From a virus, in the IMG/VR virus record IMGVR_UViG_3300028653_000014, positions 19,070 to 83,069 of that record: 64,000 nt of DNA, one strand, 5' to 3'. The translations under genes were made by a program, and so were the position numbers. Positions 8,581-63,977 of the stretch are shown here, piece by piece. A model generated the notes under the pieces. That model was not told the origin of the DNA and made no database searches. It worked only from the letters and a program-made list of their open reading frames with translations. Position 1 is the stretch's first letter. The number at the start of each line of letters is the position of its first letter.

Positions 8581-9105
8581 GTGAGCGACGACGGGGCCTC
8601 GCCGTTCCAGCCCGGGAGCCGGGTCCGTGAATGCGCGACCGGTCAAACCGGCGTCGTCCACACGTACATCGTCACGACCGGGGCCATGCTCGTCCTGCCC
8701 GACGGCGGCGTCCTCACGATCACGACAGTCGAACTGTGGGAGGACGAAGCCGACCCGTACGTCGTCGAGACGGTGCCGCTCGCACGGGTGCTGGAAGAGT
8801 TCGTGACGAACTGGCGGAAGACCCGGCCGTCGACCGCCGGTCAGTGGGGCAGCGACAACCGCGGCCCGAACCACGTCGAACCCCTGTCGGCCTTCGAGTA
8901 TCTGCACGAGCGCGGCGTCACCGACTACCAGATCCGGAAGGTGCGGGCGCCCGACAAGTTCCCGCACACCGAACTACGCGTCGCGGACTCGCTCGTGGCG
9001 GCGATCGGGATGCCGGAGATGTTCTACGACGGCACCCTGAACATCGCGCCGAACCCCGCCTCACCGCAGTCCCTGACGGGCAGCGGCGAACCCGAAGCCG
9101 CTTAG
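8581..9105 (+). CDS. Hypothetical protein, possible leaderless GTG start
   Basis: 174 aa. N-terminal ~60 residues (GSRVRECATGQTGVVHTYIVTTGAMLVLPDGGVLTI) look like a small SH3/KOW-type barrel, followed by an acidic helix and a C-terminal YLHERGVTDYQIRKVR segment resembling a short HTH. The GTG at 8581 lies 8 nt after CATGAT. Converges with the lysin gene, their stop codons overlapping by 4 nt. Function unknown; a regulator is possible. Confidence 0.65.
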   Translation: MSDDGASPFQPGSRVRECATGQTGVVHTYIVTTGAMLVLPDGGVLTITTVELWEDEADPYVVETVPLARVLEEFVTNWRKTRPSTAGQWGSDNRGPNHVEPLSAFEYLHERGVTDYQIRKVRAPDKFPHTELRVADSLVAAIGMPEMFYDGTLNIAPNPASPQSLTGSGEPEAA

Positions 9106-9953
9106 ACCGGCAGCCTCACGTACACCAGGTCTGGTGCGCCGTGCGCGCGCTGGTACGCCGCCTGCCACGAGAGCGTGCTGTCCGACGGGTCCATCCGGCC
9201 GCCCATGTTGACGCATGACCAGTCGCCGTTCTTCAACTTGCTCCGCAGGATCGTGACGTGCGCACCCGCAGGCTTGGTCGGGCCGACGAACACCACCCAG
9301 TCGCCCGGCTGCGCCTGGTTCGCCGTGATGTGCGGCAGCGCCGAGAGAATCGCCCCGGTCGCGCCATCACTGTCGAACAGCGGCTGCTGCGGGCCGAAGA
9401 TCGGATGGGCCAGACCAGCATGGGCGCCGCACCCGATCGCGTGACCTGAACAATCGCACGAGAACCGCACGCTGCCGTCCCAGCGGAGCGGCGCAACACG
9501 GAACCAGTCGCGCTCGCCGGGATCTTCACCGATGAGTTCGCTGTACAGGAACAGACCCTTGTGTACGACCGTCAGGTCGGCGATCTGGAGGAACAGATTC
9601 CGGAGCCGCTGCTCCTCCAGCATGGTCGCCTCGAACGTCATCAGGTGGACGCCGAGCGCGTCGAAGTACGGCTCCAGAACCGTGTGGGCGGGCAGCGTGT
9701 AGATCGGGTCGCTCAGCAGCCCGTGTGCGCCCTTAAACGACGACAGCACCAACTGGGCCGCCTTACCGAACCCGTCGGTCTTCAGGCTCATCCCATGCGT
9801 CCCGTGCGCCCAGTCGGCCAGCGCACGCTTCACCGCCCGGCAGTCGAGACCACTCGCGCCCGGGCCGAACTGGCGCGGGTACGGGACCCTCAAACGAACC
9901 TCAACCGGCGGGGAAGGGTCACCCGCCGGTAGCACAGGCGTAGGCGTCGTCAT
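9102..9953 (-). CDS. Endolysin with CHAP/NlpC-P60-like cysteine peptidase domain
   Basis: 283 aa. The C-terminal half has FSCDCSGHAIGCGAHAG as the candidate nucleophile-Cys motif (DCSG), followed by QPGDWVVFVGP and GAHVTIL with the candidate catalytic His, the order expected of NlpC/P60 and CHAP amidases. The N-terminal half (LDCRAVKRALADWAHG ... GLLSDPIYTLPAH) resembles a peptidoglycan-binding-like repeat. It is followed upstream by holin-like genes, which supports a lysis role. Substrate bond is not predictable. Confidence 0.75.
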   Translation of the reverse strand: MTTPTPVLPAGDPSPPVEVRLRVPYPRQFGPGASGLDCRAVKRALADWAHGTHGMSLKTDGFGKAAQLVLSSFKGAHGLLSDPIYTLPAHTVLEPYFDALGVHLMTFEATMLEEQRLRNLFLQIADLTVVHKGLFLYSELIGEDPGERDWFRVAPLRWDGSVRFSCDCSGHAIGCGAHAGLAHPIFGPQQPLFDSDGATGAILSALPHITANQAQPGDWVVFVGPTKPAGAHVTILRSKLKNGDWSCVNMGGRMDPSDSTLSWQAAYQRAHGAPDLVYVRLPV

Positions 9954-21763: not shown

Positions 21764-23188
21764 TCAAGTGGTCCTCGCCGCCTCCAAAGCCGGAAGTAGA
21801 AACGGCCTCGGAGCCGTGCGTTTATTCCCCACCCAGCCGACACCGCCCCCGCGCTTCGGATAAGCATGGGCCGTATTTCCATGCCCGAGTTCGACGTACG
21901 AGTTGCTCACCACCACGCCGTTCGCCAAAAACGAGTGAACGCCGTTTACGGCGAGGTCGTACAGGCTGGCGTGCCATGTCCCCTTTGACTTCGCCGCCTC
22001 GTCTCCGTAACGCCATGTCCTCAGAATGGTGGCCGGGACGACGCGGAATCTTTCAGGATCGACATATGACTTCGGGCCTGGGTTGCACACGACATAGCGA
22101 ACGCCCGCTAGAGGCTCTGGATCAATCGGCTCGAACGGCGGACGTGCCTTGTCGTAGAAATGAATGTGCGTGATCTCCACGCCGGGACAGAGGCGCAGGA
22201 GTTCTCGATCGCGCTCGATGTCTTTCTTCTGATCACGGTGCCAGTAGCCGCCGTCGGCCTCGATGATCTCGCGGCGCTCTGCATCGAAGAAGTCAACGAT
22301 GTAGTCACCAATCGGCACCTGGCGCTCGTAGTTCACTCCACGCTCATCAAGCCATGCGGCGACCTCGTACTCAGGTCGCGTCTCATGTCCCAACGCGGAA
22401 AGCTGTCTGTTCAGCCTGGCGCCCTGCTGACTTCGCTTCGCCGCCTCGGAAATCTTCTGGCGCGTAGCGTCAGAGCGGATGGCCCCAAGATGCGGATTCG
22501 CCCCGGCCGCCCATGCCTCATCCCGGCAGGCGGTGGAGCAATACCGCTTTCCTTGATTACGATGTGCGTCGAGGCAGTGATCGCACGTCTTTAGCAGTGC
22601 TGTTCCCTTGTTGTGAGCGAGTTTGCGCGTGGAATACAGCATGTCTCCATCGCGCAGGTCACCCGCGAAGATCCACTGATTACGCTCATCGCGCAGAACG
22701 AGAACGCGGTGATCGAGCGTCAGAGTGACTTGGTGAGTTCGATCTGATCTCCACGGCACTTCGATATCGATGAGTTCTGGCTTCTCGACTGCCGGAAAAG
22801 ACCACTTCCCGACGATCGGCTGGAAGTCTCCAGCCTGAGTGAGGACCTCTTCGCCTATCTCGATCTGACCGATAGTCCGCGGACCAGTTCTAGTCGTGAT
22901 CACAGTGTGCGCGTCGAAGACGCAGGCGTAACTGACGTTCGAGCCGATGTCGACATACGGGCCTTGCGAGTCGGCGCCTACCCGGTAGCCGATCGACGAA
23001 CGGAGACGGCCGGTGATGACGTTCGGCCCCGGCCGCCCCGTCGCGTTCGTCTTCGCGGCAGCCTCAACCCGGACGGCGCGCTTCACCAAGTCGACCACGA
23101 TCGCTTCGTTGAGCACCCGTGTGAACGCGGCAGCGTCGATCTGGAACTGGCCGAGCGTCGCCTGAATCTGGACATCGAGGACGCTCAC
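21764..23188 (-). CDS. HK97 gp10-like tail/connector protein interrupted by an intein
   Basis: 474-aa precursor, GTG at 23188 (GTGA overlap). The extein is 133 aa: residues 1-88 (VLNEAIVVDLVKRAVRVEAAAKTNATGRPG..., SSIGYRVG, IGSNVSYA) joined to SYVELGHG...RPFLLPALEAA, the classic gp10 family end, which helps join tail to head. The intein interrupts the conserved YA-YVELG strand between residues 88 and 430. The spliced product is needed for tail completion, so loss of splicing should be lethal to virion assembly. Confidence 0.85.
   Translation of the reverse strand: MSVLDVQIQATLGQFQIDAAAFTRVLNEAIVVDLVKRAVRVEAAAKTNATGRPGPNVITGRLRSSIGYRVGADSQGPYVDIGSNVSYACVFDAHTVITTRTGPRTIGQIEIGEEVLTQAGDFQPIVGKWSFPAVEKPELIDIEVPWRSDRTHQVTLTLDHRVLVLRDERNQWIFAGDLRDGDMLYSTRKLAHNKGTALLKTCDHCLDAHRNQGKRYCSTACRDEAWAAGANPHLGAIRSDATRQKISEAAKRSQQGARLNRQLSALGHETRPEYEVAAWLDERGVNYERQVPIGDYIVDFFDAERREIIEADGGYWHRDQKKDIERDRELLRLCPGVEITHIHFYDKARPPFEPIDPEPLAGVRYVVCNPGPKSYVDPERFRVVPATILRTWRYGDEAAKSKGTWHASLYDLAVNGVHSFLANGVVVSNSYVELGHGNTAHAYPKRGGGVGWVGNKRTAPRPFLLPALEAARTT
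21902..22924 (-). mobile_element. Intein in the gp10-like gene, with zinc ribbon and Vsr/DUF559-like nuclease
   Basis: 341-residue intein. It starts at Cys1 (codon 22924-22922, CVFDAHTVITT) and ends in VVVSN, followed by Ser+1. Splicing blocks: A CVFDAHTVI, B-type TLTLDHRVLVL, C-terminal DLAVNGVHSFLANGVVVSN. The central insert has a zinc ribbon (CDHCLDAHRNQGKRYCSTAC) and a PD-(D/E)XK nuclease of the Vsr/DUF559 type: YEVAAWLDERGVNYERQVPI, YIVDFFDAE, IIEADGGYWH with Asp/Glu in the expected order. Most inteins carry LAGLIDADG or HNH enzymes; this nuclease type is uncommon there. Confidence 0.88.
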
Positions 23189-24191: not shown

Positions 24192-25151
24192 ATTGCGGCT
24201 ATCGCCGCTGAGACTAGATACCTCGGCCCGAACCTATCTGGCTTCTGCATGTGCGGATGCGGTCAGAAGACCAATCTCGCCCGGTACAACGATCACGAGA
24301 AGGGGTATGTGCTCGGTCAGCCGATGCGCTATCGCCTCGGCCACGCCTTGGCGCGCACGCCGGTTATGCCGCTCGTGGCTCCTAATCCGTCCGGCTATTG
24401 CGAATGCGGATGCGGCGCAAGCACGCCCGCGGCGAAGAGAACCAATCGTCAGTTCGGACATCTAAAGGGACACCCCGTCCGCTTCATAGCAGGTCATCAA
24501 CTCAGGAATCTCTGGGAGCCGTCCCAAAATCTCACTGCTCTCTGTGCTTGCGGGTGCGGTGGTCGGACGCGTTCAGTGAAATGGGGGAACGCCTCCAAAG
24601 GGCTTTCCCGCGGTCAGGCTCAGAAGTTCATCCGCGGCCATCAACAGCGGAAACCAGTCGCAATCCAGGAAGACGAATATCTAGTCGCCGATCTCGGCTT
24701 CGACACTCCATGTTGGGTCTATCTCGGCCTGCTCGACCCGAAGGGCTACGGCATTCGGCACCGAACCGGAACGGGCACCGCACGTGCTCACCGTCAGTCG
24801 TACACGGAGTTCGTTGGTCCTATCCCATCAGGGAAGTCAATCCATCATCGTTGTCGTCACCCCGCGTGCATCAACCCAACGCATCTCGAAGCCATGCCAG
24901 TCTCCGAGAACACCGAACTCACACGAGGAACTCGACCGCCCCGCGCTGTCCGTCTACGTGTCTTTGAACGAGACGGTCACCGTTGCCGACGATGCGGTGT
25001 GACGAAGGAACTCAGCATCGACCACATCGTGCCGCTCTGTCGCGATGGCACCCACGACGAGGCGAATCTTCAGACTCTCTGCCGCTCATGCAACAGCAAA
25101 AAGGGCCGCTACTACTTCCTCGACGAACGCCTCGCTACAGCAACCCTCTAA
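24192..25151 (+). CDS. Homing-type nuclease with zinc knuckles and two HNH modules
   Basis: About 319 aa. The frame begins after a TAG with ATT at 24192; the first ATG (24249) would cut the leading LGPNLSGFCMCGCG knuckle, so an ATT start or an unseen one is likely. Three CxCGCG-type knuckles (CGCGQKT, CECGCGA, CACGCGG) are followed by HHRCRHPACINPTHLEAM, an HNH_3-like core. A second nuclease core follows: CRRCGVTKELSIDHIVPLCRDGTHDEANLQTLCRSCNSKKG. It lies on the strand opposite its host module between two structural genes, as free-standing homing endonucleases do. Confidence 0.85.
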   Translation: MAAIAAETRYLGPNLSGFCMCGCGQKTNLARYNDHEKGYVLGQPMRYRLGHALARTPVMPLVAPNPSGYCECGCGASTPAAKRTNRQFGHLKGHPVRFIAGHQLRNLWEPSQNLTALCACGCGGRTRSVKWGNASKGLSRGQAQKFIRGHQQRKPVAIQEDEYLVADLGFDTPCWVYLGLLDPKGYGIRHRTGTGTARAHRQSYTEFVGPIPSGKSIHHRCRHPACINPTHLEAMPVSENTELTRGTRPPRAVRLRVFERDGHRCRRCGVTKELSIDHIVPLCRDGTHDEANLQTLCRSCNSKKGRYYFLDERLATATL

Positions 25152-28554: not shown

Positions 28555-28583
28555 GCCGCCCCCCTAAATGAGGTAAAATAAAT

Positions 28584-28607
28584 GCCGGGACGTATCCGCG
28601 TCCCGGC
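28584..28607 (-). terminator. Rho-independent terminator
   Basis: Perfect 9-bp stem (28584-28592 with 28599-28607), loop 6 nt; on the minus strand it is followed by ATTTATTTTA. Terminates transcripts from the capsid gene before the next structural gene. Confidence 0.7.
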
Positions 28608-28640
28608 CCTCAACTGGGCCACATCAACCAGGGAGAAGAC

Positions 28641-29417
28641 GTGACCAGCAGCGAGCTTTGCACCTGCACCCTTTGCACGGCAGGCGAGCCTGTTCCGTAC
28701 GGCACCTGCCACTGCGCGTGCGGCGAGAAAACGAACCCGGCGCCGTTCACGAACCCCGCCAGGGACTACGTGAAGGGCGAGCCGGTGAAGTACGTCAAGG
28801 GCCACGGCTCCCGCTCGAAGGACTGGAAGAAGCGTTGGAACAGCGAGGGACCAAACCCATCCGGCATCTGCCAGTACAACGGCTGCGATCAGCCGACCCT
28901 GCTCTCCGCGAACACCGTGTGGCATCTCGGGATCATCCGAGGAGAGCCGCTCCGTATGTGCCCTAAACACAAGCACCCCGGACGGAAGAAGGCCACTCTC
29001 ACCTTCGACATTGAGGATCGTGGATACATCAGCGACGAAGGGGTGGCTAGCGACTGCCACATCTTCAATCGTGACGCCCGCGACGGGAAGAACGGCGTAT
29101 ACGGAGTCATCGGCGGAAAGTCGCGGCTCGCCCATATCGTCGCATGGGAAGCGCTCAACGGCGCTCTGCCGCGCGGTCTCACCCTCGACCATCTCTGCGA
29201 GATCAAACTCTGCGTCAACCCCGATCATCTCCGCCTCTCCACTAGAGCGGTACACGCCAAGCGGCACGCTGACCTGCGGATTGACAAGAACGTGATCTCG
29301 GCTATCCGCGACGCCCTGCGTACAAGTGATCTCACTCAGAAGCAGATCGCCGCGAAGTTCGGCGTCAGCCTCAGCTACGTGGGCAGAGTCCGCTCCGCCA
29401 TGAAGCGCGAGTCCTAG
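28641..29417 (+). CDS. HNH homing-type endonuclease with C-terminal HTH
   Basis: 258 aa, GTG at 28641 with GGGAGA upstream. Zinc-knuckle modules CTCTLCTAGE, CHCACGEKT and CQYNGCDQP...CPKHKHPG, then a nuclease core (LAHIVAWEALNGALPRG, LDHLCEIKLCVNPDHLRL: HNH_3-like), and a C-terminal helix-turn-helix (TQKQIAAKFGVSLSYVGRV). Opposite strand to the surrounding capsid operon and bounded by its own terminator. Probably homes into the capsid-tail boundary. Confidence 0.86.
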   Translation: MTSSELCTCTLCTAGEPVPYGTCHCACGEKTNPAPFTNPARDYVKGEPVKYVKGHGSRSKDWKKRWNSEGPNPSGICQYNGCDQPTLLSANTVWHLGIIRGEPLRMCPKHKHPGRKKATLTFDIEDRGYISDEGVASDCHIFNRDARDGKNGVYGVIGGKSRLAHIVAWEALNGALPRGLTLDHLCEIKLCVNPDHLRLSTRAVHAKRHADLRIDKNVISAIRDALRTSDLTQKQIAAKFGVSLSYVGRVRSAMKRES

Positions 29418-35189: not shown

Positions 35190-35374
35190 TCGGCGGCATG
35201 GTCGGGCGCACGTATCTGCTCCCCGACGGCCGTCTCGGCCGTGTCGTCGCGCGCTGGTCGGGGAAGGGATGCCCGCGGAACGTGCTCGTCGCGTTCGAGG
35301 ACGGCAGCATGACGTGTCGGCCCTTCCGGGGCCTTCGTCGCCTCCCTGCGCCGTATACTCCGCCCCGTGATTGA
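35186..35374 (+). CDS. Small KOW-like beta protein
   Basis: 62 aa, ATGA overlap at 35186. MVGRTYLLPDGRLGRVVARW and VLVAFEDGSMTCRPFRGLRRL resemble a single SH3/KOW barrel. Ends 8 nt into the lysozyme gene. Confidence 0.62.
   Translation: MIGGMVGRTYLLPDGRLGRVVARWSGKGCPRNVLVAFEDGSMTCRPFRGLRRLPAPYTPPRD
35354..35366 (+). promoter_or_regulatory. Promoter with TATACT at the lysozyme start
   Basis: TATACT (35354-35359) sits exactly 7 nt before the GTG at 35367 and inside the end of the upstream gene, implying a leaderless internal transcript for the lysozyme. No clear -35. Confidence 0.5.
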
Positions 35375-36870
35375 CCAGACGCAGCCGGGCGCCACGTGGG
35401 GGCTTGGCGATGTGTTTCTGCAGCCGCGGCAGGTGGCCGATCTCGCGTATCGACACGGTGTCACGAACGCCGCCGACTTGGCGGTCATCATCGCGATCTG
35501 TTACGCCGAGTCTCAGGCAGGGGTGAACGCGTGGCACGACAACCTAGCGGCGGACGGCGTGACGGTTCTGAGCCGCGACGTCGGTCTTTTCCAGATCAAC
35601 ATCCCGGCCAGTGCGATCGGCGGACCTCAGGAGGAGGCTCTGTACGACCCGGAGAAGAACGCGGCAGCGATGTTCGCGCTCTACAGCCACCGCCGCTTCG
35701 AGCCGTGGGCGTCGTTCAACTGCGTCCCGCTTGATGCCCAGATTTTGACAAGGCGCGGCTGGCTTGACTCCACCGACGTACGCGCTGGGTTCGATCAGAC
35801 ACTGGGCTATGACACGGCGCTCGAACAGCTTAGATGGACGTCGATCCTTCACGTCGGACAGCTAGAAAAGCAGGTCACGATTGAGATAGATGGCCGTCAG
35901 TGGAAGGCGCGAGTAACGCCGGGGCATCGCTGGTCCCTAGTCCGCAACTGGTATACGCGACGGACGAGGACACCGCGAGAGGAACTTGCCCCAACGAATG
36001 AGATTCGTCCACATGATCGTATTCGGCTAGCGGCAGTCGCTGTCGGAGGCGATCTCCCCATCTCCCCGCAAGAAGCAGCGGTGATTGCGTGGCTGCTTGG
36101 AGACGGGAGTATGCGCACACGTCAGAGCGACGGAAGACGCCGGGCGTTTATGGTCGAGAGCGACGAGGCAGACCTCGTTGGCAAGGCGTGCATCTTGCAG
36201 TCGAAGCCCTCAGGGGTCGCCGCATTACAAGCACTCCTAGAACCCGTCCCTCACCGCGCCACACAAACTGCGCACATCGCCGAGGGGCAAAACTATCGGC
36301 GCTCGCGATTCACGCTTGCCCCAGACTATGTACGGGACGTCCTTGCTCGTGCCGAGATCGACCAGCGTGGCCTGATGGGATTCGTGTTCGGACTAAGCAT
36401 GGAGGCGAGACAGGCGTTTGTTGAGGCATTCGTGATGGCCGAGGGTGGTCATGAACCCACAGGGTCGTATTTCACCCAGAACGAGGGGGCCACTACTTGA
36501 TGCTGCGATTGTCGCGACGTACATGAACGGCAAGCGACCGAGTGTCCACGTCAACGCGCCACATCGGTCAGACATATCGCGCAGCGTCCACCTCTGCGAA
36601 CCGTATGCAGCCGGTTCGCGCCTCCAGTTCGGAGTCGAGCAAGTCGAAGATGTCTGGTGTCCTACGACTGAACTTGGCACGTGGACGATGCGCCAGAACG
36701 GACGCGTAATGCTGACGGGGAACTCCGCCGTGTATCTGAACGACGGCTACACGGGGAAGGCCGCGCTCGGGATGTGCAACTTCGCGGTCGAACGGTTCAA
36801 CACGGCCGGGGCCAAGCTGCCGTTGCCGCTGTTCACGCTGCCCGATCTGCGCAAGAAGCTCCCGCACTAA
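35367..36870 (+). CDS. Lysozyme-like transglycosylase interrupted by a frameshifted intein
   Basis: Needs one base fewer to read through (500 aa); as sequenced the frame stops at 36500. Extein (166 aa): Glu48 in IAICYAESQAGV and DVGLFQINIPA at 72-82 are lysozyme-fold hallmarks. The C-terminal extein begins at SAVYLNDGYTGKAALGMC. The N-extein ends FEPWASFN, so the intein splits the conserved FxPW..N-S region of the fold. Would cleave peptidoglycan at entry or lysis. The G run at 36485-36489 has five G; with four the frame is continuous. Confidence 0.82.
35721..36723 (+). mobile_element. LAGLIDADG-type intein in the lysozyme gene, frameshifted
   Basis: Starts at Cys1 (TGC 35721, CVPLDAQILTRRGWL), ends RVMLTGN (N codon 36721-36723) before Ser+1. 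Block B VTPGHRWSL. Endonuclease motifs IAWLLGDGS and FVEAFVMAEGGH match the paired LAGLIDADG helices. A single extra G in GGGGG at 36485-36489 shifts the frame within YFTQNEG-PLLDAAIVATYMNGKRPSV. About 334 residues after correction. The C-terminal part (VWCPTTELGTWTMRQNGRVM) is close to the portal intein's. Confidence 0.85.
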
Positions 36871-37556: not shown

Positions 37557-39116
37557 TTACAGCAGGCCGAGCGCGAGCATCTCTTCCAACTCCGCCTGCT
37601 CCCGCTCCGCACGCGCGTCGACGGTCGGCAGGTGTTTGTCGAGCCAGTCGGCGGGGAACCCGGAGCCGCCGCCGAGCGCGACCGTGACGGGCGGTGGCGG
37701 AACGTGGCCGCCGGACACGGTGACGGCCAGGGTCGATGTGCCCGCCAGGACGGGGGTGAGGTACTGGAACCGTGTGAGGGTCGCGGCGAGCGTGCTGGTG
37801 CCCGTCAGGGTCGGCCGGATGTAGACGACGCCCAGCAGCGACGCGGTCAGACTCGATGTGCCGACGAACGTCGGGGTCAGCAGCTTGTACTCGGCCAGTC
37901 CGGCGTCCAGTGTCGAGGTGCCGCTGAGCGCGACGGTGATCTGCTGGAACTCGGTCAGCGCGGCACTCAGCGCGGACGTGCCTGCCAGATCGACGGTGAC
38001 GTACCGGAACTCCGTGACGGCGGCGGCGAGACTCGATGTACCGGCCAGCGTGACCGTGATGCGCTTCTGCTCCGCAACACTCACGCTCAGAGACGAACTG
38101 CCCGCGAGGGTCGGGGTCAGATAGACGAGTTCCCCCAGGGTCGCCGTGAGGGTGCTGGCCCCGGCCAGGGCAACGGTGATGTGCTTGTACTCCGTGACGG
38201 CTGCCGACAACGACGAGGTGCCTGTCAGCGACACCGTGATCTGCTTGAACGAAGTCAGGGTTGCGGTCAGCGACGATGTGCCCGCGAGAGCCGGGGTGAT
38301 GTGCTTGAACTCCATCAGGGACGCGGCGAGCGTGCTCGTGCCTGCGAGTGCAACGGTGATCTGCTTGTCCGCCGTCAGGGCCGCCGTCAGCGACGAGGTT
38401 CCAGCCAGGGTGACGGTGATGGCTTTGAACTCGGTGACGGTCGCGGTCAGCGAACTTGTCCCGGCCAGCGTGACCGTCAGGTTCTTATCCGACGTCAGGG
38501 AGGCGCTGAGAGACGACGTACCGGTCAACGAGACCGTCAGACGCTTCTGCTCCGTCAGGGTCGCCGTGAGGCTGCTGGTGCCCGCGAGGGACACCGTGAG
38601 ATTCTTGTCCTCGACTAGCGAAGCGCTGAGGGCCGATGTTCCCGCGAGGGCGACCGTGATCTGTTTGAACTCCGTGAGGCTTGCCGCAAGGCTGCTCGTT
38701 CCTGCCAGTGTCACCGTGAGGTTCTTGTCCTCGACTAGAGACGCCGACAGACTCGACGTGCCCGCCAGAGCAACCGTGATTCGTTTCTGCTGCGTCAGCG
38801 AGGCCGTCAACGCCGACGTCCCGGCCAGCGTGACCGTCAGGTCGTCGTCCTCTACGAGCGCCGCCGTCAGTGACGAGGTGCCCGCCAACGCGACGGTGAT
38901 CTGCTTGTATTCCGTCAGCGTCGTGCTGAGACTTGAGGTACCGGCCAGGGCAACGACGAGGGAGTCGATGGCTGTTTCAGCCGGAACCTGCTGGCGCATC
39001 GGCTCACCAGCGCGGAAGTAGTCGAACTCGAACTCGCTGCTCTTACCCGCGAAGGCGCCGAACGGCTCCCCCGCGCGGAAGTAGTCGAGTTCGTTTGGGT
39101 TAGCCGCCGAGGCCAT
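37557..39116 (-). CDS. Repetitive appendage protein, 21 x 20-residue repeats
   Basis: 519 aa. Two copies of DYFRAGEP near the N-terminus, then about 21 tandem 20-residue repeats of consensus ITVALAGTSSLTASLTEFKQ (residues ~54-472), and a C-terminal region with PPPPVTVALGGGSGFPADWL and an acidic helix. Each repeat reads as two beta strands and a turn, like a stack or solenoid. TGATG-coupled to the spike gene, so a fibre or surface decoration is likely. Copy number may vary among relatives. Confidence 0.75.
   Translation of the reverse strand: MASAANPNELDYFRAGEPFGAFAGKSSEFEFDYFRAGEPMRQQVPAETAIDSLVVALAGTSSLSTTLTEYKQITVALAGTSSLTAALVEDDDLTVTLAGTSALTASLTQQKRITVALAGTSSLSASLVEDKNLTVTLAGTSSLAASLTEFKQITVALAGTSALSASLVEDKNLTVSLAGTSSLTATLTEQKRLTVSLTGTSSLSASLTSDKNLTVTLAGTSSLTATVTEFKAITVTLAGTSSLTAALTADKQITVALAGTSTLAASLMEFKHITPALAGTSSLTATLTSFKQITVSLTGTSSLSAAVTEYKHITVALAGASTLTATLGELVYLTPTLAGSSSLSVSVAEQKRITVTLAGTSSLAAAVTEFRYVTVDLAGTSALSAALTEFQQITVALSGTSTLDAGLAEYKLLTPTFVGTSSLTASLLGVVYIRPTLTGTSTLAATLTRFQYLTPVLAGTSTLAVTVSGGHVPPPPVTVALGGGSGFPADWLDKHLPTVDARAEREQAELEEMLALGLL
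37700..38957. repeat. 60-bp coding minisatellite
   Basis: Tandem ~60-bp units, about 21 copies, with frequent synonymous changes; unit motif on the coding strand starts near GTNGCNCTNGCNGGNAC. Encodes the repeats of the 37557-39116 product. Confidence 0.8.
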
Positions 39117-48734: not shown

Positions 48735-51686
48735 TCATTGCCCGAACGAGACTGAGCATCTGCAGTTAGCTACCTGCGAGACGTCACCATCTGGATCACC
48801 GGGGTAGTTCAGCGCGAACCCGTCAACGTCGAACGCCTCCTCAAGAGCGCGCTGCTGACCGTCGAGGCCGTCCACGAGTTCGTGTCGCGGATACAAAGCT
48901 CCCGGAGCCGTCATCCAAGTCTTGGGCATCGTCGAGCCGGTCGCCTGCCCGACGAGTTGCGCCGACGTGACCGCGGCGCCGTTCGCCAAACCGGTCATCT
49001 CCGTATTTCCCGTGTAGACGCCGTTCGCGATAAAGTACCCGTACGGCGTGCAGAGGTTGAAGACATAGCCAGCGAACGAGACCAGTCGACTCGCGATCAC
49101 GCGGTCCAACTGTATGTCTCCGGTCTCAGCGCGCGGGTGGTCGGGTCGGCTGTCGGCGTGGATAAGAGCGTCGTGCTGCGATGGGTCGACGCAGCCGGAA
49201 TACCTCGTCGCACTCTTCAGGAGGCTCGTGCTTTGTTCTTCGAGAACGGCGGGAACGTCCATAACCGCCGAGACGACATTAACGCTGCCGATGTGATCGA
49301 ACGCTTCAACTCGGGACGGGCGGTGAAAAAGATCGCCGGGGATCTGGACACGAGCGGAATTGTCATCCGACGAATCCTGCTCGAAAACGGGATCACCCCT
49401 CGAAACCCCGCAGAAGCAGGCGCTCTGGTCAATCGCCAGCAAGCCTCCGCACTCCGCGCAGAAGGGCGAATGTCCCAGTACGTCGGCTGGGGCGAAGACA
49501 TCATCGCCGAGATGCTCTCCGAGAGGGGCGAACATCCCGAGCGACAATTCCCCGTCGGGCCACGCAATCTCGACCTCGCCCTCATGCCCGTCGCCGTGGA
49601 AGTCTGGCTCTCCTCCGCTTCGCCTCTCAATGATCCCTACTGTCGCGACCGTCTCGAATATCTCAGCGATCGTGGCTGGTGGATTTGCTACATCTTCATC
49701 GCGCGCCGCACTCGGGTTTTGGTTCCCGAAGTAGCAGACGAGATCGTCTCCTTCGTTGAGTTCGCCCGCAGTTCTCCAGCCGCCGCGCGTGAGCATCGGG
49801 TGATTCGGGGTTGCGGTGAACTCGCGGCCAGATTCCATGACGATGACCGCCATGTCTCCCTCGTACCACCGTCTCGTGACTGCCCGCACCACAGCACCAT
49901 CAACAAGCGTCTCCGCGGGTAGACAGCGCGCGATCAGGGTGGAGCGGGTGACTGACGCCTGCTTCATGCCGGACCGGATCGCCTCGGCCGTGTCGGGGAT
50001 CGACAGTCCGGCCTGGTACGACTGGCCGATGATGTCCATCACGTCGGCCTGGGTCGTCTCGGTGATGTTCGTGACCTGGCTGGCGGACTTCGCGAGCACC
50101 CCGCTGATGAGCGGGTTGTGGACGTCCCAGTTCAGCCCGGCCGCTTCGAGGACAGGGGTCATGGCGGACTTGATGAACGCCTGCCGGATCGGCTCGGTGC
50201 GCGCCTTGATCTCAGCGATCAGCGCGGTCACGTCGAGGACTTCGGCCGGGGCGGGCGCTGTCCACTGCGGCGGGGTCGGCGTCGCGTCCTGATCGCCCGC
50301 GGCGGTCAACTGGCGAACCCCGGTCAGCGGGAAGTCTGCGACCACCTGGTTGCCCTGCACGATCTTCAGCGAGTCGAAGTGGAGTGGCGCGCCGAGTGTG
50401 GCCGTGTCGGGCGGCGCAGTCGAGTCATCCCGGTAGGCGATCGTCCCGTGTGGCTGGTAGCCGTGGTTGCGCGCGTAGTCGGCGTCCGCGACTAGCACCG
50501 CCGTACAGACCGCCTGGCGCAGCTCGACAAGCCCTGGCACGTCGGGAAGAACGATCGCTGGTGTCCCGTTGCCCTGGTCTTGGAACGCGCCGACACCGCC
50601 GACTGTCCCTTCGAGCGGCGGGTGAGACGCTGCGACGCGGGTGAGTGCGGTACGTACGGCGTCGACGGTCTCCTCGTCGGTGTCTCCGAGGTACGCGAGC
50701 GTCACGTGGATGTCCTCGGGCTTCTCGCCTCCCGTCTCAGCGATTGCGGCAGCCTCAGCCGGGCGCGGAAAGAGTGCGATCATGGTTGAGGCGCTCGTGA
50801 TGTCCGCAGCGGCCGTCAGCGCAAGTGACGCGAGCAGCGCGCGGCCTTCCTCCAACCCGATCGCACCGAGCGCGTCCCGGTCGGCACGGCGGGCAAGCGA
50901 GGCGGTGAGATGGTTCGTGACGCGGGACTGGAACGTGCGGGCCGCCTGCTCACCGGCCTGCTCTAGGATCGGCTGGATCGCGGCGGCGAGCTTCGGCTCC
51001 AACGCGTCGACGCGCTTCTGCGCCTCCGCCAGAACCTTGTTGTGGAGCAGAGGCGGGACGACCTTCGCGGGCGGCGCGGACTGCGGGGCGGCGTCGGCGG
51101 TCACGGCGTGGTCGGATTCTAGCCTCACCCATTCGTCACACACGTTCGACGGCGACACCGGCGCCCCGAACATCAGGCAGACGGCGTTCTCGTAGAACTT
51201 GCAGGTCGCGCAGGCCACGTCGGGGTCGTCCGATGCCCGGTAGTGGACGCGGGCCGGGATGCCGTCGTCCACAGGCTTGTCCCCATCTGTGGATTCGGCG
51301 AACGCCCGCTCGACGTGAGCCGCGACAATGGCAGGAAAGACGGCCTGGCGCGCATCTTCCGCAGTGGCGGGTTTGAGGATGTCGCTCAATCGAACCTCGT
51401 CGAACGCGGAGTCACGGACGACGCGAAACTCAAGTCCGCCCGGATTCGGGTTGGCGGCGGTAACGCGGGCGTTACTCGCAACCGTCCTGGCAGGGGAGAC
51501 CGAGGCTGGAACGCCGCCGTCCTCCCAAGCGTTGCAGAGCCGATCTCCTTGCACGGTCACGTCGAACCGTCCGCACTGGTCGACCGTCCCAGCGCCGTAG
51601 AACGAGCACGTCGCGCACGAGACCGCATGGGTCGGCGCAGGCCGGTACTGCTCCGACGCGGGGATCGTCCCGCGCCCGTCGTTCAC
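48735..51686 (-). CDS. MuF-type head morphogenesis protein fused to a 2H phosphoesterase, with intein
   Basis: 983-aa precursor from GTG at 51686 (GTGA overlap). Extein 676 aa: two Cys modules (CATCSFYGAGTVDQCGRF...C and CATCKFYENAVCLMFGAP...C); a 2H phosphoesterase domain ~300-455 with HVTLAYLG (~327-334) and HGTIAYRD (~413-420); then a helical MuF-like domain (RSTLIAR|TEMTGLANGAAVTS, TWMTAPGALYPRHELVDGLDGQ) ending VANCRCSVSFGQ. MuF/SPP1 gp7-like proteins act between portal and capsid. The intein splits the conserved IAR-TE motif. Confidence 0.87.
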   Translation of the reverse strand: MNDGRGTIPASEQYRPAPTHAVSCATCSFYGAGTVDQCGRFDVTVQGDRLCNAWEDGGVPASVSPARTVASNARVTAANPNPGGLEFRVVRDSAFDEVRLSDILKPATAEDARQAVFPAIVAAHVERAFAESTDGDKPVDDGIPARVHYRASDDPDVACATCKFYENAVCLMFGAPVSPSNVCDEWVRLESDHAVTADAAPQSAPPAKVVPPLLHNKVLAEAQKRVDALEPKLAAAIQPILEQAGEQAARTFQSRVTNHLTASLARRADRDALGAIGLEEGRALLASLALTAAADITSASTMIALFPRPAEAAAIAETGGEKPEDIHVTLAYLGDTDEETVDAVRTALTRVAASHPPLEGTVGGVGAFQDQGNGTPAIVLPDVPGLVELRQAVCTAVLVADADYARNHGYQPHGTIAYRDDSTAPPDTATLGAPLHFDSLKIVQGNQVVADFPLTGVRQLTAAGDQDATPTPPQWTAPAPAEVLDVTALIAEIKARTEPIRQAFIKSAMTPVLEAAGLNWDVHNPLISGVLAKSASQVTNITETTQADVMDIIGQSYQAGLSIPDTAEAIRSGMKQASVTRSTLIARCLPAETLVDGAVVRAVTRRWYEGDMAVIVMESGREFTATPNHPMLTRGGWRTAGELNEGDDLVCYFGNQNPSAARDEDVANPPATIAEIFETVATVGIIERRSGGEPDFHGDGHEGEVEIAWPDGELSLGMFAPLGEHLGDDVFAPADVLGHSPFCAECGGLLAIDQSACFCGVSRGDPVFEQDSSDDNSARVQIPGDLFHRPSRVEAFDHIGSVNVVSAVMDVPAVLEEQSTSLLKSATRYSGCVDPSQHDALIHADSRPDHPRAETGDIQLDRVIASRLVSFAGYVFNLCTPYGYFIANGVYTGNTEMTGLANGAAVTSAQLVGQATGSTMPKTWMTAPGALYPRHELVDGLDGQQRALEEAFDVDGFALNYPGDPDGDVSQVANCRCSVSFGQ
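48882..49922 (+). CDS. Antisense HTH plus Vsr/DUF559-like homing nuclease inside the MuF intein
   Basis: Reading frame of up to 346 aa opposite the MuF gene. The protein-like core is residues ~74-300 (49101-49781): two HTH repeats (YVSGLSARVVGSAVGVDKSV, FNSGRAVKKIAGDLDTSGIV) followed by a Vsr/DUF559-type nuclease (EDIIAEMLSERGEHPERQFP, NLDLALMPVAVEVWLS, RLEYLSDRGWWICYIFIA). The core fits exactly between the splicing blocks on the other strand. Start is uncertain: no ATG, GTG or TTG occurs between 48885 and the HTH, so the ATG at 48882 is the only conventional one. Expression or remnant status cannot be told from sequence. Confidence 0.6.
   Translation: MSRIQSSRSRHPSLGHRRAGRLPDELRRRDRGAVRQTGHLRISRVDAVRDKVPVRRAEVEDIASERDQSTRDHAVQLYVSGLSARVVGSAVGVDKSVVLRWVDAAGIPRRTLQEARALFFENGGNVHNRRDDINAADVIERFNSGRAVKKIAGDLDTSGIVIRRILLENGITPRNPAEAGALVNRQQASALRAEGRMSQYVGWGEDIIAEMLSERGEHPERQFPVGPRNLDLALMPVAVEVWLSSASPLNDPYCRDRLEYLSDRGWWICYIFIARRTRVLVPEVADEIVSFVEFARSSPAAAREHRVIRGCGELAARFHDDDRHVSLVPPSRDCPHHSTINKRLRG
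49005..49925 (-). mobile_element. Intein in the MuF-type gene, without in-frame nuclease
   Basis: 307 residues from Cys1 (codon 49925-49923, CLPAETLVDGAVV) to VYTGN (N codon 49007-49005), followed by Thr+1. Block B FTATPNHPMLTRGGWRT. Residues ~63-275 encode no recognisable endonuclease in frame: sequence there is Gly/Asp/Glu-rich and corresponds to the reverse complement of the plus-strand nuclease. C-terminal block VFNLCTPYGYFIANGVYTGN. Confidence 0.87.
51460..51475. promoter_or_regulatory. 16-bp perfect palindrome, operator/stoperator candidate 12 (intragenic)
   Basis: GTAACGCGGGCGTTAC inside the 5' part of the MuF gene, encoding S-N-A-R-V-T. Confidence 0.65.
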
Positions 51687-51871: not shown

Positions 51872-54800
51872 CTACTTGCCCGCCGTCAGCAGTCCCTGAA
51901 CGAACTGCGGGAACGAGTCCGGCATCAGTTGCGGCTTCAAGTCGTACAGCGTGCGGGCCGCGTGCTTCTCGATCGTGTCCGCAATCGACGTCTGCACCCC
52001 GTCGTCCGTGATCCCGAACACCCTGAGCGCGTCGAGGATCAACGTGCGGGCGCCGCCGACGAGGGCGGCCTCTGACGGGACGTTGGGGAGGTTCCGCACG
52101 CGCGCACGTCCCAGAGTGGCTGCAACGTCGCGTGCCGGGACGCCCTCTATCAGCGCGAGGGTTTCATCGTCGCGACGTGCGAGCGTCCGTAGGCGGCTTC
52201 CTGCGGCCTCACGAGCACGTAGGAGCGCCAACTGGGCGGCGCCCTGAACCATCACCGTCTGTGCCCGCTGCGCGGACGCCACGACCTCGTTGTCGACCCC
52301 GGCCGGGTCGTCCTTCGGCACAGGCGGCGTCTTCTCGACGTCGGCCGCCGTGACTCCGCCATCGCCTGTAGTGCCACCGTCTGGACCGGGCGAGACGAGC
52401 GTGTCCGAGTCCGGCTCAAGTTCGGAGTTCTGCCTGAGCGACGGGACGCCGTAGACAGCCAGCGACGGGTCGCGCAGCTTGACGCCGAGCCAACGGTTCC
52501 GCTCCTCCTCGGTCGGCGCGTCGTTGTCGCCGAAGTTCGCGACACCGCGCAGCGCCTCGTCACCGATGACGCCACGGTCGTGGAGGTCCTTCGCGTCCTT
52601 CGTGCGGTCCGGATGGTTGATGACCGCGGTCGCGTCGTACGCGATCACGTATTTCCCCCAGTCCGCGATGTTCTGATCCATCAGGTACGGGGACAGGTAG
52701 GCGTCCGTCAAGTCCTGCACGAGCGAATCCGCGACAGGCTGCAGGTGGTACTTCCACGTGATCTCGTCGATGTTCCAGGCGCTGTTGCCGGTGAAGAACG
52801 TCCGCCCGTCCCGCCGCGCAAGCCATGTGCGGTTCACCGTGGTGGGGCACCAGACGACTCCCGAGTAACTGACTATCTCGTCCGTGGCGCCGTCGTCGTT
52901 GAACTGCCGTCCGGCTTCCTGCGCCGCCTTGACAGGCCGTACCGCCAGAGAGCGCAGCGCCCGCACGACAACACCGCCATCGTGTGACGGTTGCCGGGAG
53001 GCGGCGCGGCCCGAGAGGATCACCGCAAGCTCGAATGCGTCGAGCCGGGCCGGGTCCTTCTGCCAGACGTCGAGTAGGCCGCCGCGGTAATGATGGCCGT
53101 CCCCCTGGCAGGAGACGTCGATGAAGAGTTCTAGTTGCGCCCTGCTCAGCGCCGAGATGAACTCCGGGCTGACGCATTTCGACGGCGCGATGTCGAGCAG
53201 GGGCTTCGACGCCTGCTGGTTCAGGTGGAAGACGGTGATGGGGACGCCGTGACTTCCATCGTTCTGCTGAATGGCCTCACGCCATGCCGGGACACCGAGC
53301 ATCCTCGTCTTGCCGACCGATGGTCCGTAGAGACGGGTCAGGCAGCCGCGGATGCGCTCCACCCTGTCGGCGTTCCGGGTGTGGGACTGAGCGATCGACA
53401 GCGTCTTGCCTCGCGCGTGTCCTTCCGTCCAGAACCAGGCGGCAAGCTCTACTAGATCGTCCGGAACGACGGCAAGATTCTCGTCGCCCGCGAACGCACC
53501 CGTGATGATCGAATCGGCAGCGGTCAGGCGCTTCGTTGTCGTCCACTCCCGCGATACGTACGGAACCTTGTCCTTGTGCCGAAGCCGTGTAACCGGCCAG
53601 CGATGGTTCAGCGTCGTGAGCGAACTGTGCGTGCGACTCTCCAGCCGACGCATCGGCTCGTTCGTCACGCCAGCGCGATAGATGTCCAGAACGGGCTGCC
53701 ACTCGGCGAGGCCGGTCTCGTGATTGAGAGTGCGTACGACGTCGCCCGTTTCGAGGTCGTCGTGCGTCACCCATCCTCTGTCCTTCGTCAGAATCTCCGT
53801 CGATTCGTCCGAGCACCAGTGGTTGACGTCGCCCAATCCGAGAAGGACTTCGGGCGGCATGTCGAGCGAGACGGCGAGGCGGCGGATGCACTCGTCGCGC
53901 AGCCCGGTCTCCGGGTACACCTGGGTCGGGTCGATGATCTGGAGATGGAAGACCAAGTCGGAGAGTTTCATCCCTTCAGGGACGCGCACACGGGCGACGA
54001 GCGGTACGACGGCCCCGGCGGTGCCTTCGTTGATGATCGGCTTCGTCATCGCCTCCGTCAGGTCGGCGAGGAACGGGTCCTCCTGCGGGTCCTCGTCCGG
54101 GGCGGCCTCTGACGGGGTGGTGGTGATCCGGTCGTCGATGAACAGGACGCCGGAGCCTGCGAGGCGTGACCGGGCGCGGGCACGGACGGCCTGCGTGAGG
54201 AGCACGTACTCCTCCAGGATGTCCAGGCACGCCATGACGGACGAGTCGGCCAGCGACGACCAGCGCGGATGCCGTTTCCAGATCCGGTAGGCGACCGCCG
54301 TGTCTGCGAGCGGCTCGAAGTCCTTGTCGGGGGCCGGGTAGAACTGGTTCGCGGGAAGCTGCGGCGCCTTGAAGCGGGTGTAGAGGCCCTCGATCAGCCG
54401 CACCTCGTCGGTGGAGAGCATCTCCCACTGTTCCAGCTTCGTCCGCTGGTTGATCGTGACGAGCAGATACGCCTCGCCGACGAGGAACATCAGGCGGCCG
54501 TAGTTCGCCAACAGCCCGGTGCGCCCGGTGCCGCCCGGGTCTTTGATCCGGGCGAGCGCGTCGATGACGACCTCGTTCTTCGTACGGACGACCTCGCCCG
54601 TCTCCTCGTCGATCTCCCCGGCGAACAACTCCAACTGGGCGAGTGCGCGGCTGTAGAACTGGGCGGCGTACTTGAGCGGCCCGACGATATCGTAGTAGCC
54701 CATCGCGCGTACCTGCCACGCCTGGATCAGTCGGCGCAGATAGGTCGCGTCGCCGTGCTGCACCAACTCCCCTGCCGCGGTGAGTGAGCCGGGCTGCTCT

Positions 54801-56401: not shown

Positions 56402-56748
56402 TCGTCGTCCTCCTGATCGTCAAGCCAAGATTCCGGGAACGTGTACGGGCGCCCCGGGTCGTCGTAGCGGATGCCGCCCCGACCGGTCTTGACCGATGGA
56501 AGCGAATCACGAATCGGCCGCTTCAGCCCGTCGACCATGACTAGGTCGTAGTAAGGGGCGACGGGCGCGCACAGACCGCCGGACGCGATCATCGACCGCG
56601 ACAGCACCGTGTTCTCGACAGGGACAGGAGGCCCAACGTCGTAGTCGATCCACTCGGCGTCGGTCTTGGCTGCCGCTGCGGGCAGCTTGCCGAACGCGAG
56701 CGCGCCAACGACCGCGCCTGCGCGCTTCAGGAACGAGCCTCTGTTCAT
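56398..56748 (-). CDS. Signal-peptide-bearing fragment paralogue of the capsid protein
   Basis: 116 aa from the ATG at 56748 (ATGA overlap). Starts MNRGSFLKRAGAVVGALAFG then KLPAAAAKTD, a signal or Tat-like N-terminus. Residues ~55-100 (ASGGLCAPVAPYYDLVMVDG, LKRPIRDSLPSVKTGRGGIRYDDPG) align with ASGGLCAPVTPYYNLQY and GALPSFNADRGGLRYARP of the major capsid protein at 29528-31273. The homology is limited to about 45 residues. A domesticated capsid fragment, decoy or exported protein; the function is unknown. Confidence 0.75.
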   Translation of the reverse strand: MNRGSFLKRAGAVVGALAFGKLPAAAAKTDAEWIDYDVGPPVPVENTVLSRSMIASGGLCAPVAPYYDLVMVDGLKRPIRDSLPSVKTGRGGIRYDDPGRPYTFPESWLDDQEDDE

Positions 56749-63462: not shown

Positions 63463-63977
63463 TTTCGCCTACTGCCTGACTGATAAGCCCTTCTGAGACC
63501 TTCGCCAATGCGCGCTCGGTGTTCCGCAGTGTGTCGCTTTGATCTTCTTCCCTTCGCAATGCAATCTGCCGAGTTGTCGGCGTGAGTACCGACGAAAAGA
63601 TGCTCCGGATTCACACAAGCCGGGACGTCGCAGCGATGAAGTACAAGCAGCCCGTCAGATATGGGGCCGACAAAATGTCGATACGACCAGCGGTGAGCGA
63701 GCATGTTGACATTGCCGCCCTTCGCCGATTTCGTCCCGTCCCAGAACATCCCGTAGCCACCCTTTGTCGGATGCCCCTGCCAGAGCCAGCAACCGGTAGC
63801 TAGCTCTACAACGTAACGGCCGTGGAATCTCTCTTCGTCAGTCTTGACCGTCTTGGCAGGCGCCGGAGCAATAGGGTCGCCATAGATAGTCCAGCGCCAG
63901 TAGTGAGGTCGACACCAGCCACGCGTGTACGACCTCTTAGAACATCCCTCTACGGCGCAGTCCGGAACTTCCCGCAA
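63459..63977 (-). CDS. HNH homing-type endonuclease
   Basis: 172 aa from TTG at 63977. A zinc-knuckle CAVEGCSKRSYTRGWCRPHYWRW, a beta segment GCWLWQGHPTKGGYGMFW, then LAHRWSYRHFVGPISDGLLVLHRCDVPACVNPEHLFVGTHADN, the HNH_3 core. It precedes the GT2-like gene with overlapping stop/start, showing that insertion kept the operon coupled. AT-richer than its neighbours. Confidence 0.82.
   Translation of the reverse strand: MREVPDCAVEGCSKRSYTRGWCRPHYWRWTIYGDPIAPAPAKTVKTDEERFHGRYVVELATGCWLWQGHPTKGGYGMFWDGTKSAKGGNVNMLAHRWSYRHFVGPISDGLLVLHRCDVPACVNPEHLFVGTHADNSADCIAKGRRSKRHTAEHRARIGEGLRRAYQSGSRRK

What the first reader, a model, noticed from the sequence alone, without database searches (positions are those of the whole stretch)
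35721..36723. Single-base frameshift within the lysozyme intein
A run of five G at 36485-36489 breaks the reading frame; with four G the LAGLIDADG-type intein and C-extein are continuous. It may be a sequencing or assembly indel, a real inactivating mutation, or a site of slippage that would couple lysozyme production to frameshifting. As written, no spliced lysozyme is made.
Basis: seen in the sequence. Interest (0 to 1): 0.7.

Follow-up and report, generated by a model that had tools for sequence, protein, structure and literature searches.

The report
Frame-broken intein in phage lysozyme
A self-splicing protein insert (intein) in a bacterial virus's lysozyme gene is knocked out of frame by one extra base in a run of five Gs; all 71 relatives examined are in frame, so this is most likely a sequencing slip or a fresh mutation rather than a control switch.

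Summary
In this 83-kb IMG/VR phage record, a LAGLIDADG intein (35721-36723) interrupts a lysozyme (SLT_3) gene (35367-36870). The frame changes by +1 at GGGGG 36485-36489, and the upstream frame ends at TGA 36498-36500. Profile alignment shows the two open pieces are complementary halves of one intein, meeting exactly at the G run. All 71 relatives found in IMG/VR, and three named phages, carry this stretch in a single frame. The rest of the intein is intact: all splicing residues, no other lesion, and a C-extein with phage-like codon use that matches an entry lysozyme across the junction.

Programmed slippage is not supported. The site is not conserved, no RNA structure follows, and 55 in-frame GGG.G sites (four GGG.GCC) sit harmlessly in intact genes of the record. 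An internal Shine-Dalgarno/ATG in the new frame leaves a weak split-intein rival. I conclude one unprogrammed extra base: an assembly error or a recent inactivating mutation, indistinguishable without reads. The more notable fact is that three further, intact inteins lie in the same record.

The parts
35367..35720 (+). N-extein of the lysozyme: GTG start, SLT_3 domain, ends ...FEPWASFN
   Evidence: PF18896 at E 7.9e-10, residues 26-115; the only SLT_3 match in the record; aligns with the Rhodococcus phage P19 entry lysozyme
35721..36723 (+). Intein with LAGLIDADG endonuclease domain; Cys1, TPGH, HRW, VWC, TGN and Ser+1 present; 334 aa if read across the break
   Evidence: fold of the relative L028 matches TliVMA and PI-SceI inteins
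36485..36489 (+). GGGGG run where the frame changes by +1
36498..36500 (+). TGA that ends the upstream frame, three codons after the break
36436..36870 (+). Open +1 frame that carries the C-terminal intein part (blocks F and G) and the C-extein
36441..36453 (+). Shine-Dalgarno-like GAGG with ATG at 36451 in the +1 frame: possible internal start, basis of the split-intein rival. The GAG GGT codons also encode the conserved E-G of the second LAGLIDADG motif
   Evidence: 3.7% of comparable stretches inside intact genes hold such a site
36724..36870 (+). C-extein SAVYLNDGYTGK...KKLPH, in the shifted frame
   Evidence: GC3 0.938, phage-like; WASFN|SAVYL aligns with WSTYNSGAYL of phage P19

Best explanation
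An intein of a widespread phage family sits near the end of a lysozyme gene. As an in-frame chain it would splice itself out, joining ...WASFN to SAVYL..., and its LAGLIDADG domain would help it spread. In this record one unprogrammed extra base in a G run shifts the frame in the turn between the last endonuclease strand and the next helix. The ribosome stops three codons later. The chain then lacks splicing blocks F and G, so a single chain cannot splice; it leaves the lysozyme N-domain fused to a dead intein stump. The extra base is either an assembly or sequencing error or a recent mutation in the sampled phage. Shown: the frame break, its location, the intactness of everything else, and its absence from relatives. 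Inferred: that it is unprogrammed and recent or artefactual, and that splicing would occur in an in-frame copy.
For: The two ORFs are complementary halves of one profile, meeting at the G run (ungapped alignment). 71/71 relatives are in one frame. All splicing residues, the first LAGLIDADG acid (LLGDG) and the second motif (AEG, as in relatives L027-L030) are intact. The 126 codons after the break are open, and the C-extein keeps GC3 0.938 against 0.831 for the N-extein, so little time has passed since the frame was whole. The extein junction matches phage P19 lysozyme. No other frame break was found in 20 genes (27.9 kb) checked against relatives G001-G004, nor by a codon-usage scan, so this is an isolated event.
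Against: 24 G or C runs of five or more in homology-checked genes of the record cause no break, so there is no general homopolymer error; that makes an artefact less automatic and a real variant more plausible. No second copy of the locus was found to compare, and no reads are available. A Shine-Dalgarno/ATG in the new frame leaves a functional reading open.
Confidence: 0.9

Rival explanations
1. Within the main explanation, the base is an artefact of sequencing or assembly and the real phage has a whole intein.
For: A single lesion in an otherwise perfect element, lying in a homopolymer; 71/71 relatives whole.
Against: 24 other G/C runs of five or more in checked genes, including one G6 and one C6, cause no break. 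71 other IMG/VR inteins show no such error, so the base rate of such errors is low. The sequencing platform is unknown.
Confidence: 0.5
2. Within the main explanation, the base is a real, recent inactivating mutation segregating in the phage population, tolerated because this lysozyme is accessory.
For: The rest of the record is free of detected frame errors. The lysozyme is not detected in the four relatives G001-G004. A weak NlpC/P60 match at 9102-9953 may offer another wall hydrolase.
Against: No population data; no second sequence of the locus.
Confidence: 0.4
3. The gene is a split intein: the ribosome restarts at ATG 36451 in the +1 frame, and the two pieces associate and splice in trans.
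For: GAGG six bases before ATG 36451, found by chance in only 3.7% of comparable stretches. The two ORFs overlap and together hold all splicing blocks. A naturally split phage-type class 3 intein, AceL NrdHF, is known (PMC7891396).
Against: No relative is split. The break is inside the endonuclease domain (by homology with L028, between strand 263-268 and helix 271-282), not at the usual split point at the endonuclease insertion site. About 13 residues of the restarted piece would be out-of-frame sequence. The SD lies on conserved E-G codons of LAGLIDADG.
Confidence: 0.05
4. Programmed +1 slippage: tRNA-Gly on GGG moves one base forward onto GGG and restores the intein frame in a fraction of ribosomes, dosing the lysozyme.
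For: Re-pairing GGG to GGG is perfect at 36486-36489, and a stop follows within three codons.
Against: Not conserved in 71 relatives. The next codon GCC is the 4th commonest in the phage, and 55 GGG.G sites including 4 GGG.GCC lie in intact genes. No stimulatory RNA structure (z +1.3) and no upstream SD-like stimulator seen close to the site. A two-base backward slip would mispair.
Confidence: 0.03

Closest known systems
Tape-measure intein of Gordonia phages Mcklovin and Twinkle
   Same: 35% identical over the whole intein, same blocks, Cys1 and HRW/WC/T residues, LAGLIDADG domain; ungapped over the break
   Different: Inserted in a tape-measure gene; in one frame
DNA polymerase inteins of Escherichia phage PaulScherrer and Pseudomonas phage KIL1
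   Same: 34% and 26% identical, same splicing blocks; the PaulScherrer element is annotated as an intein
   Different: DNA polymerase host gene; PaulScherrer's is shorter (245 aa); both in one frame
AceL NrdHF, naturally split class 3 intein (PMC7891396)
   Same: Phage-type intein with an internal block F Cys, made in two pieces
   Different: Split at the endonuclease insertion point with a GIY-YIG gene between the halves, no Cys1, trans-splicing shown; here the halves overlap in two frames and are separated by one base
Arthrobacter FB24 Arth_1007 intein pseudogene (PMC3196547)
   Same: A decayed intein retained in a genome
   Different: Inactive through substitutions, not a frame break
Putative entry lysozyme of Rhodococcus phage P19
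   Same: 30% identical over 119 residues, continuous across the splice junction
   Different: No intein

Membership tests
Intein (Hint splicing domain with LAGLIDADG homing endonuclease) | Splicing blocks A, B, F, G with Cys/Ser1, block B T..H, terminal Asn and Ser/Thr/Cys+1 | tested here: met
   CVPLD; TPGH; VWCPTT; TGN followed by Ser. Blocks F and G lie in the other reading frame
Intein (Hint splicing domain with LAGLIDADG homing endonuclease) | Interrupts a host protein whose flanks join seamlessly | tested here: met
   WASFN|SAVYL matches WSTYNSGAYL of the intein-free P19 lysozyme
Intein (Hint splicing domain with LAGLIDADG homing endonuclease) | Hint plus LAGLIDADG fold | tested here: met
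   Tested on the relative L028 (pLDDT 92), which matches TliVMA (Z 23.7) and PI-SceI (Z 20.8); the window's own halves align to that family's profile
Intein (Hint splicing domain with LAGLIDADG homing endonuclease) | One continuous reading frame with the exteins | tested here: not met
   Frame changes at 36485-36489
Intein (Hint splicing domain with LAGLIDADG homing endonuclease) | Splicing activity | not testable with these tools
   Needs expression
Class 3 intein | Trp B:12, Cys F:4, Thr G:5 (WCT) | tested here: met
   HRW, VWC, LTGN
Class 3 intein | No Cys or Ser at position 1 (PMC7664689, PMC5050341) | tested here: not met
   Cys1 present here and in 62 of 63 relatives counted
Naturally split intein | Two separately translated genes whose products splice in trans | tested here: inconclusive
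   Possible SD/ATG at 36441-36453; no split relatives; no expression data
Programmed +1 frameshift gene | Conserved slip site with a pause or stimulatory element | tested here: not met

The most novel reading that the evidence does not exclude
The record is correct and the gene is a natural split intein created by a one-base shift, with overlapping halves translated from two starts and spliced in trans to make the lysozyme.
Probability: 0.04. Interest if true: 0.7.

Novelty: new member of a known kind. Interest (0 to 1): 0.2.

Why it matters
As a frameshift it matters little: it is a caution against reading function into one base of a metagenome contig. If real, it would be an example of an intein dying together with its host gene; the authors of PMC3196547 called theirs the first decayed intein pseudogene known to be retained in a genome. 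A side result is more useful: four inteins in one phage record, three whole, and a large phage intein group that carries both Cys1 and the class 3 WCT residues, which the class definitions in the papers read treat as exclusive.

Tried and rejected
Second copies of the locus: none in phages, plasmids, viral contigs or genome contigs; the record's near-identical kin may be left out of these searches. Lysozyme in the four phage relatives: not found. Pfam and NCBIfam do not recognise the lysozyme intein, so profile and fold comparison of relatives was used. phmmer hits of the spliced lysozyme to designed SAKe6BE repeat proteins are repeat-inflated chance: single stretches score about 8 bits. Reading the window intein through with a four-letter codon for folding did not work, since the words tried also occur earlier in frame, so the close relative L028 was folded instead. 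A general homopolymer problem in the record: rejected. Frameshift-stimulating RNA structure: rejected. Promoter and terminator scan around the gene: nothing.

Full report
Setting. The window is bases 19070-83069 of an 83,069-base IMG/VR virus record. Its portal and major head proteins match PHROG families, and its head protein is closest to those of actinobacterial phages such as Arthrobacter phages Atuin and Mimi. Four IMG/VR contigs carry 41-63% identical head proteins.

Observation. The lysozyme ORF starts at GTG 35367 and carries an SLT_3 domain at residues 26-115. Its frame ends at TGA 36498-36500. The +1 frame is open from 36436 to 36870 and carries the rest of the intein and the C-extein. 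The switch lies at GGGGG 36485-36489. The intein begins at Cys 35721 and ends at Asn 36721-36723, followed by Ser.

Where the break lies. Aligned with intact inteins in three named phages, YFTQNEG|PLLDAAIVATYMNGKRP matches without a gap (Mcklovin: RIYQDEG|PLIEVITTLAYFCGHRP). A 34-member profile of relatives matches the first ORF over columns 1-236 and the second over columns 234-316. The break is therefore in or within a few bases of the G run. On the AlphaFold2 model of relative L028 (pLDDT 92), it falls between endonuclease strand 263-268 and helix 271-282. The truncated chain lacks the last Hint strands with the block F Cys and terminal Asn. The model matches the TliVMA, PI-SceI and PI-PfuI inteins over the whole length.

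Is it conserved? An alignment-based scan of IMG/VR found 71 relatives. In every one, all matches are in a single frame. None has a stop inside an intein; the single stop counted, in L068, lies in a 709-aa span that covers two tandem inteins. Among the sequences seen, the break is unique to this record.

Is the record error-prone? Relatives' ORFs aligned to the record show no gene split over two frames, apart from paralogous HNH genes, a short head-protein-like segment at 56455-56598, and reverse-strand shadow ORFs. The 20 genes checked (27.9 kb) hold 24 G or C runs of five or more. So a general homopolymer problem is excluded, but a single error is not.

Could it be programmed? The tRNA on GGG could re-pair one base forward. 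But the next codon, GCC, is the 4th commonest; 55 in-frame GGG.G sites, four of them GGG.GCC, occur in intact genes. The RNA downstream is less structured than its shuffles. No relative shares the feature.

Could it be a split gene? GAGG 36441-36444 precedes ATG 36451 in the new frame, a combination found in 3.7% of comparable stretches. It lies on conserved LAGLIDADG codons, which may explain it. The break is inside the endonuclease, unlike the known split intein AceL NrdHF, which is split where endonuclease domains are inserted (PMC7891396). I keep this at about 5%.

Age of the lesion. Every catalytic residue and 126 codons past the break are intact. The C-extein has GC3 0.938 and the N-extein 0.831, as in phage genes, while the intein has 0.63-0.65, consistent with an element acquired from elsewhere. 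The extein junction aligns with the intein-free entry lysozyme of Rhodococcus phage P19. A long-dead gene would show more damage, so the lesion is recent or not real.

Consequences. As written, a single chain cannot splice. The 377-aa product still has SLT_3 profile positions 3-88 of 89, so partial lysozyme function is possible; this is untested. A study of 224 mycobacteriophage endolysins found none interrupted by an intein (PMC3314691); whether the present gene is a lysis or an entry enzyme is unknown.

Other inteins. Three further inteins in the record are in frame: portal 52784-53815, a MuF-like/2'-5' RNA ligase protein 49005-49925, and neck 21902-22924. The phage relatives lack them, as their homologous proteins align on either side of each insert.

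Probabilities. The headline confidence (0.9) is for one unprogrammed extra base; it divides into roughly 0.5 artefact and 0.4 real mutation. These are judgements, not computed values.

Noticed in passing
52784-53815 (-), 49005-49925 (-), 21902-22924 (-): Three more inteins, all in frame: in the portal, in a large 2'-5' RNA ligase/MuF-like protein, and in an HK97-gp10 neck protein. Related phages lack all three. Four inteins in one phage record is a lot.
   Followed up: partly
35721-36723 and loci L027-L097: Cys1 occurs together with the class 3 residues W (B:12), C (F:4), T (G:5): 43 of 63 relatives counted have all four, 62 have Cys1. The papers read describe WCT as confined to inteins without Cys1 (PMC7664689, PMC5050341), so which Cys starts splicing here is open.
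   Followed up: partly
21902-22924 (-): The neck intein's nuclease is a DUF559/MTES_1575 (Vsr-like) domain next to a CxxC...C..C motif, not LAGLIDADG.
   Followed up: no
24249-25151 (+), 28572-29417 (+), about 63573-63830 (-): Free-standing HNH endonuclease genes, two of them on the opposite strand to the structural genes, with related stretches elsewhere in the record including the first 19 kb.
   Followed up: partly
37557-39116 (-): A protein built of repeated units of about 20 residues (LAGTSSLTATLTE...ITVA), a likely fibre or surface protein; its reverse strand also shows long open frames.
   Followed up: no
L068:1870-3996: Two related inteins lie head to tail in one contig, with a stop in the span that covers both.
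   Followed up: no
52784-53815 (-) and L086:3001-3990: The window's portal intein and the L086 intein sit at the same site (NHW|C...TGN|SAW), pointing to a shared homing site.
   Followed up: no
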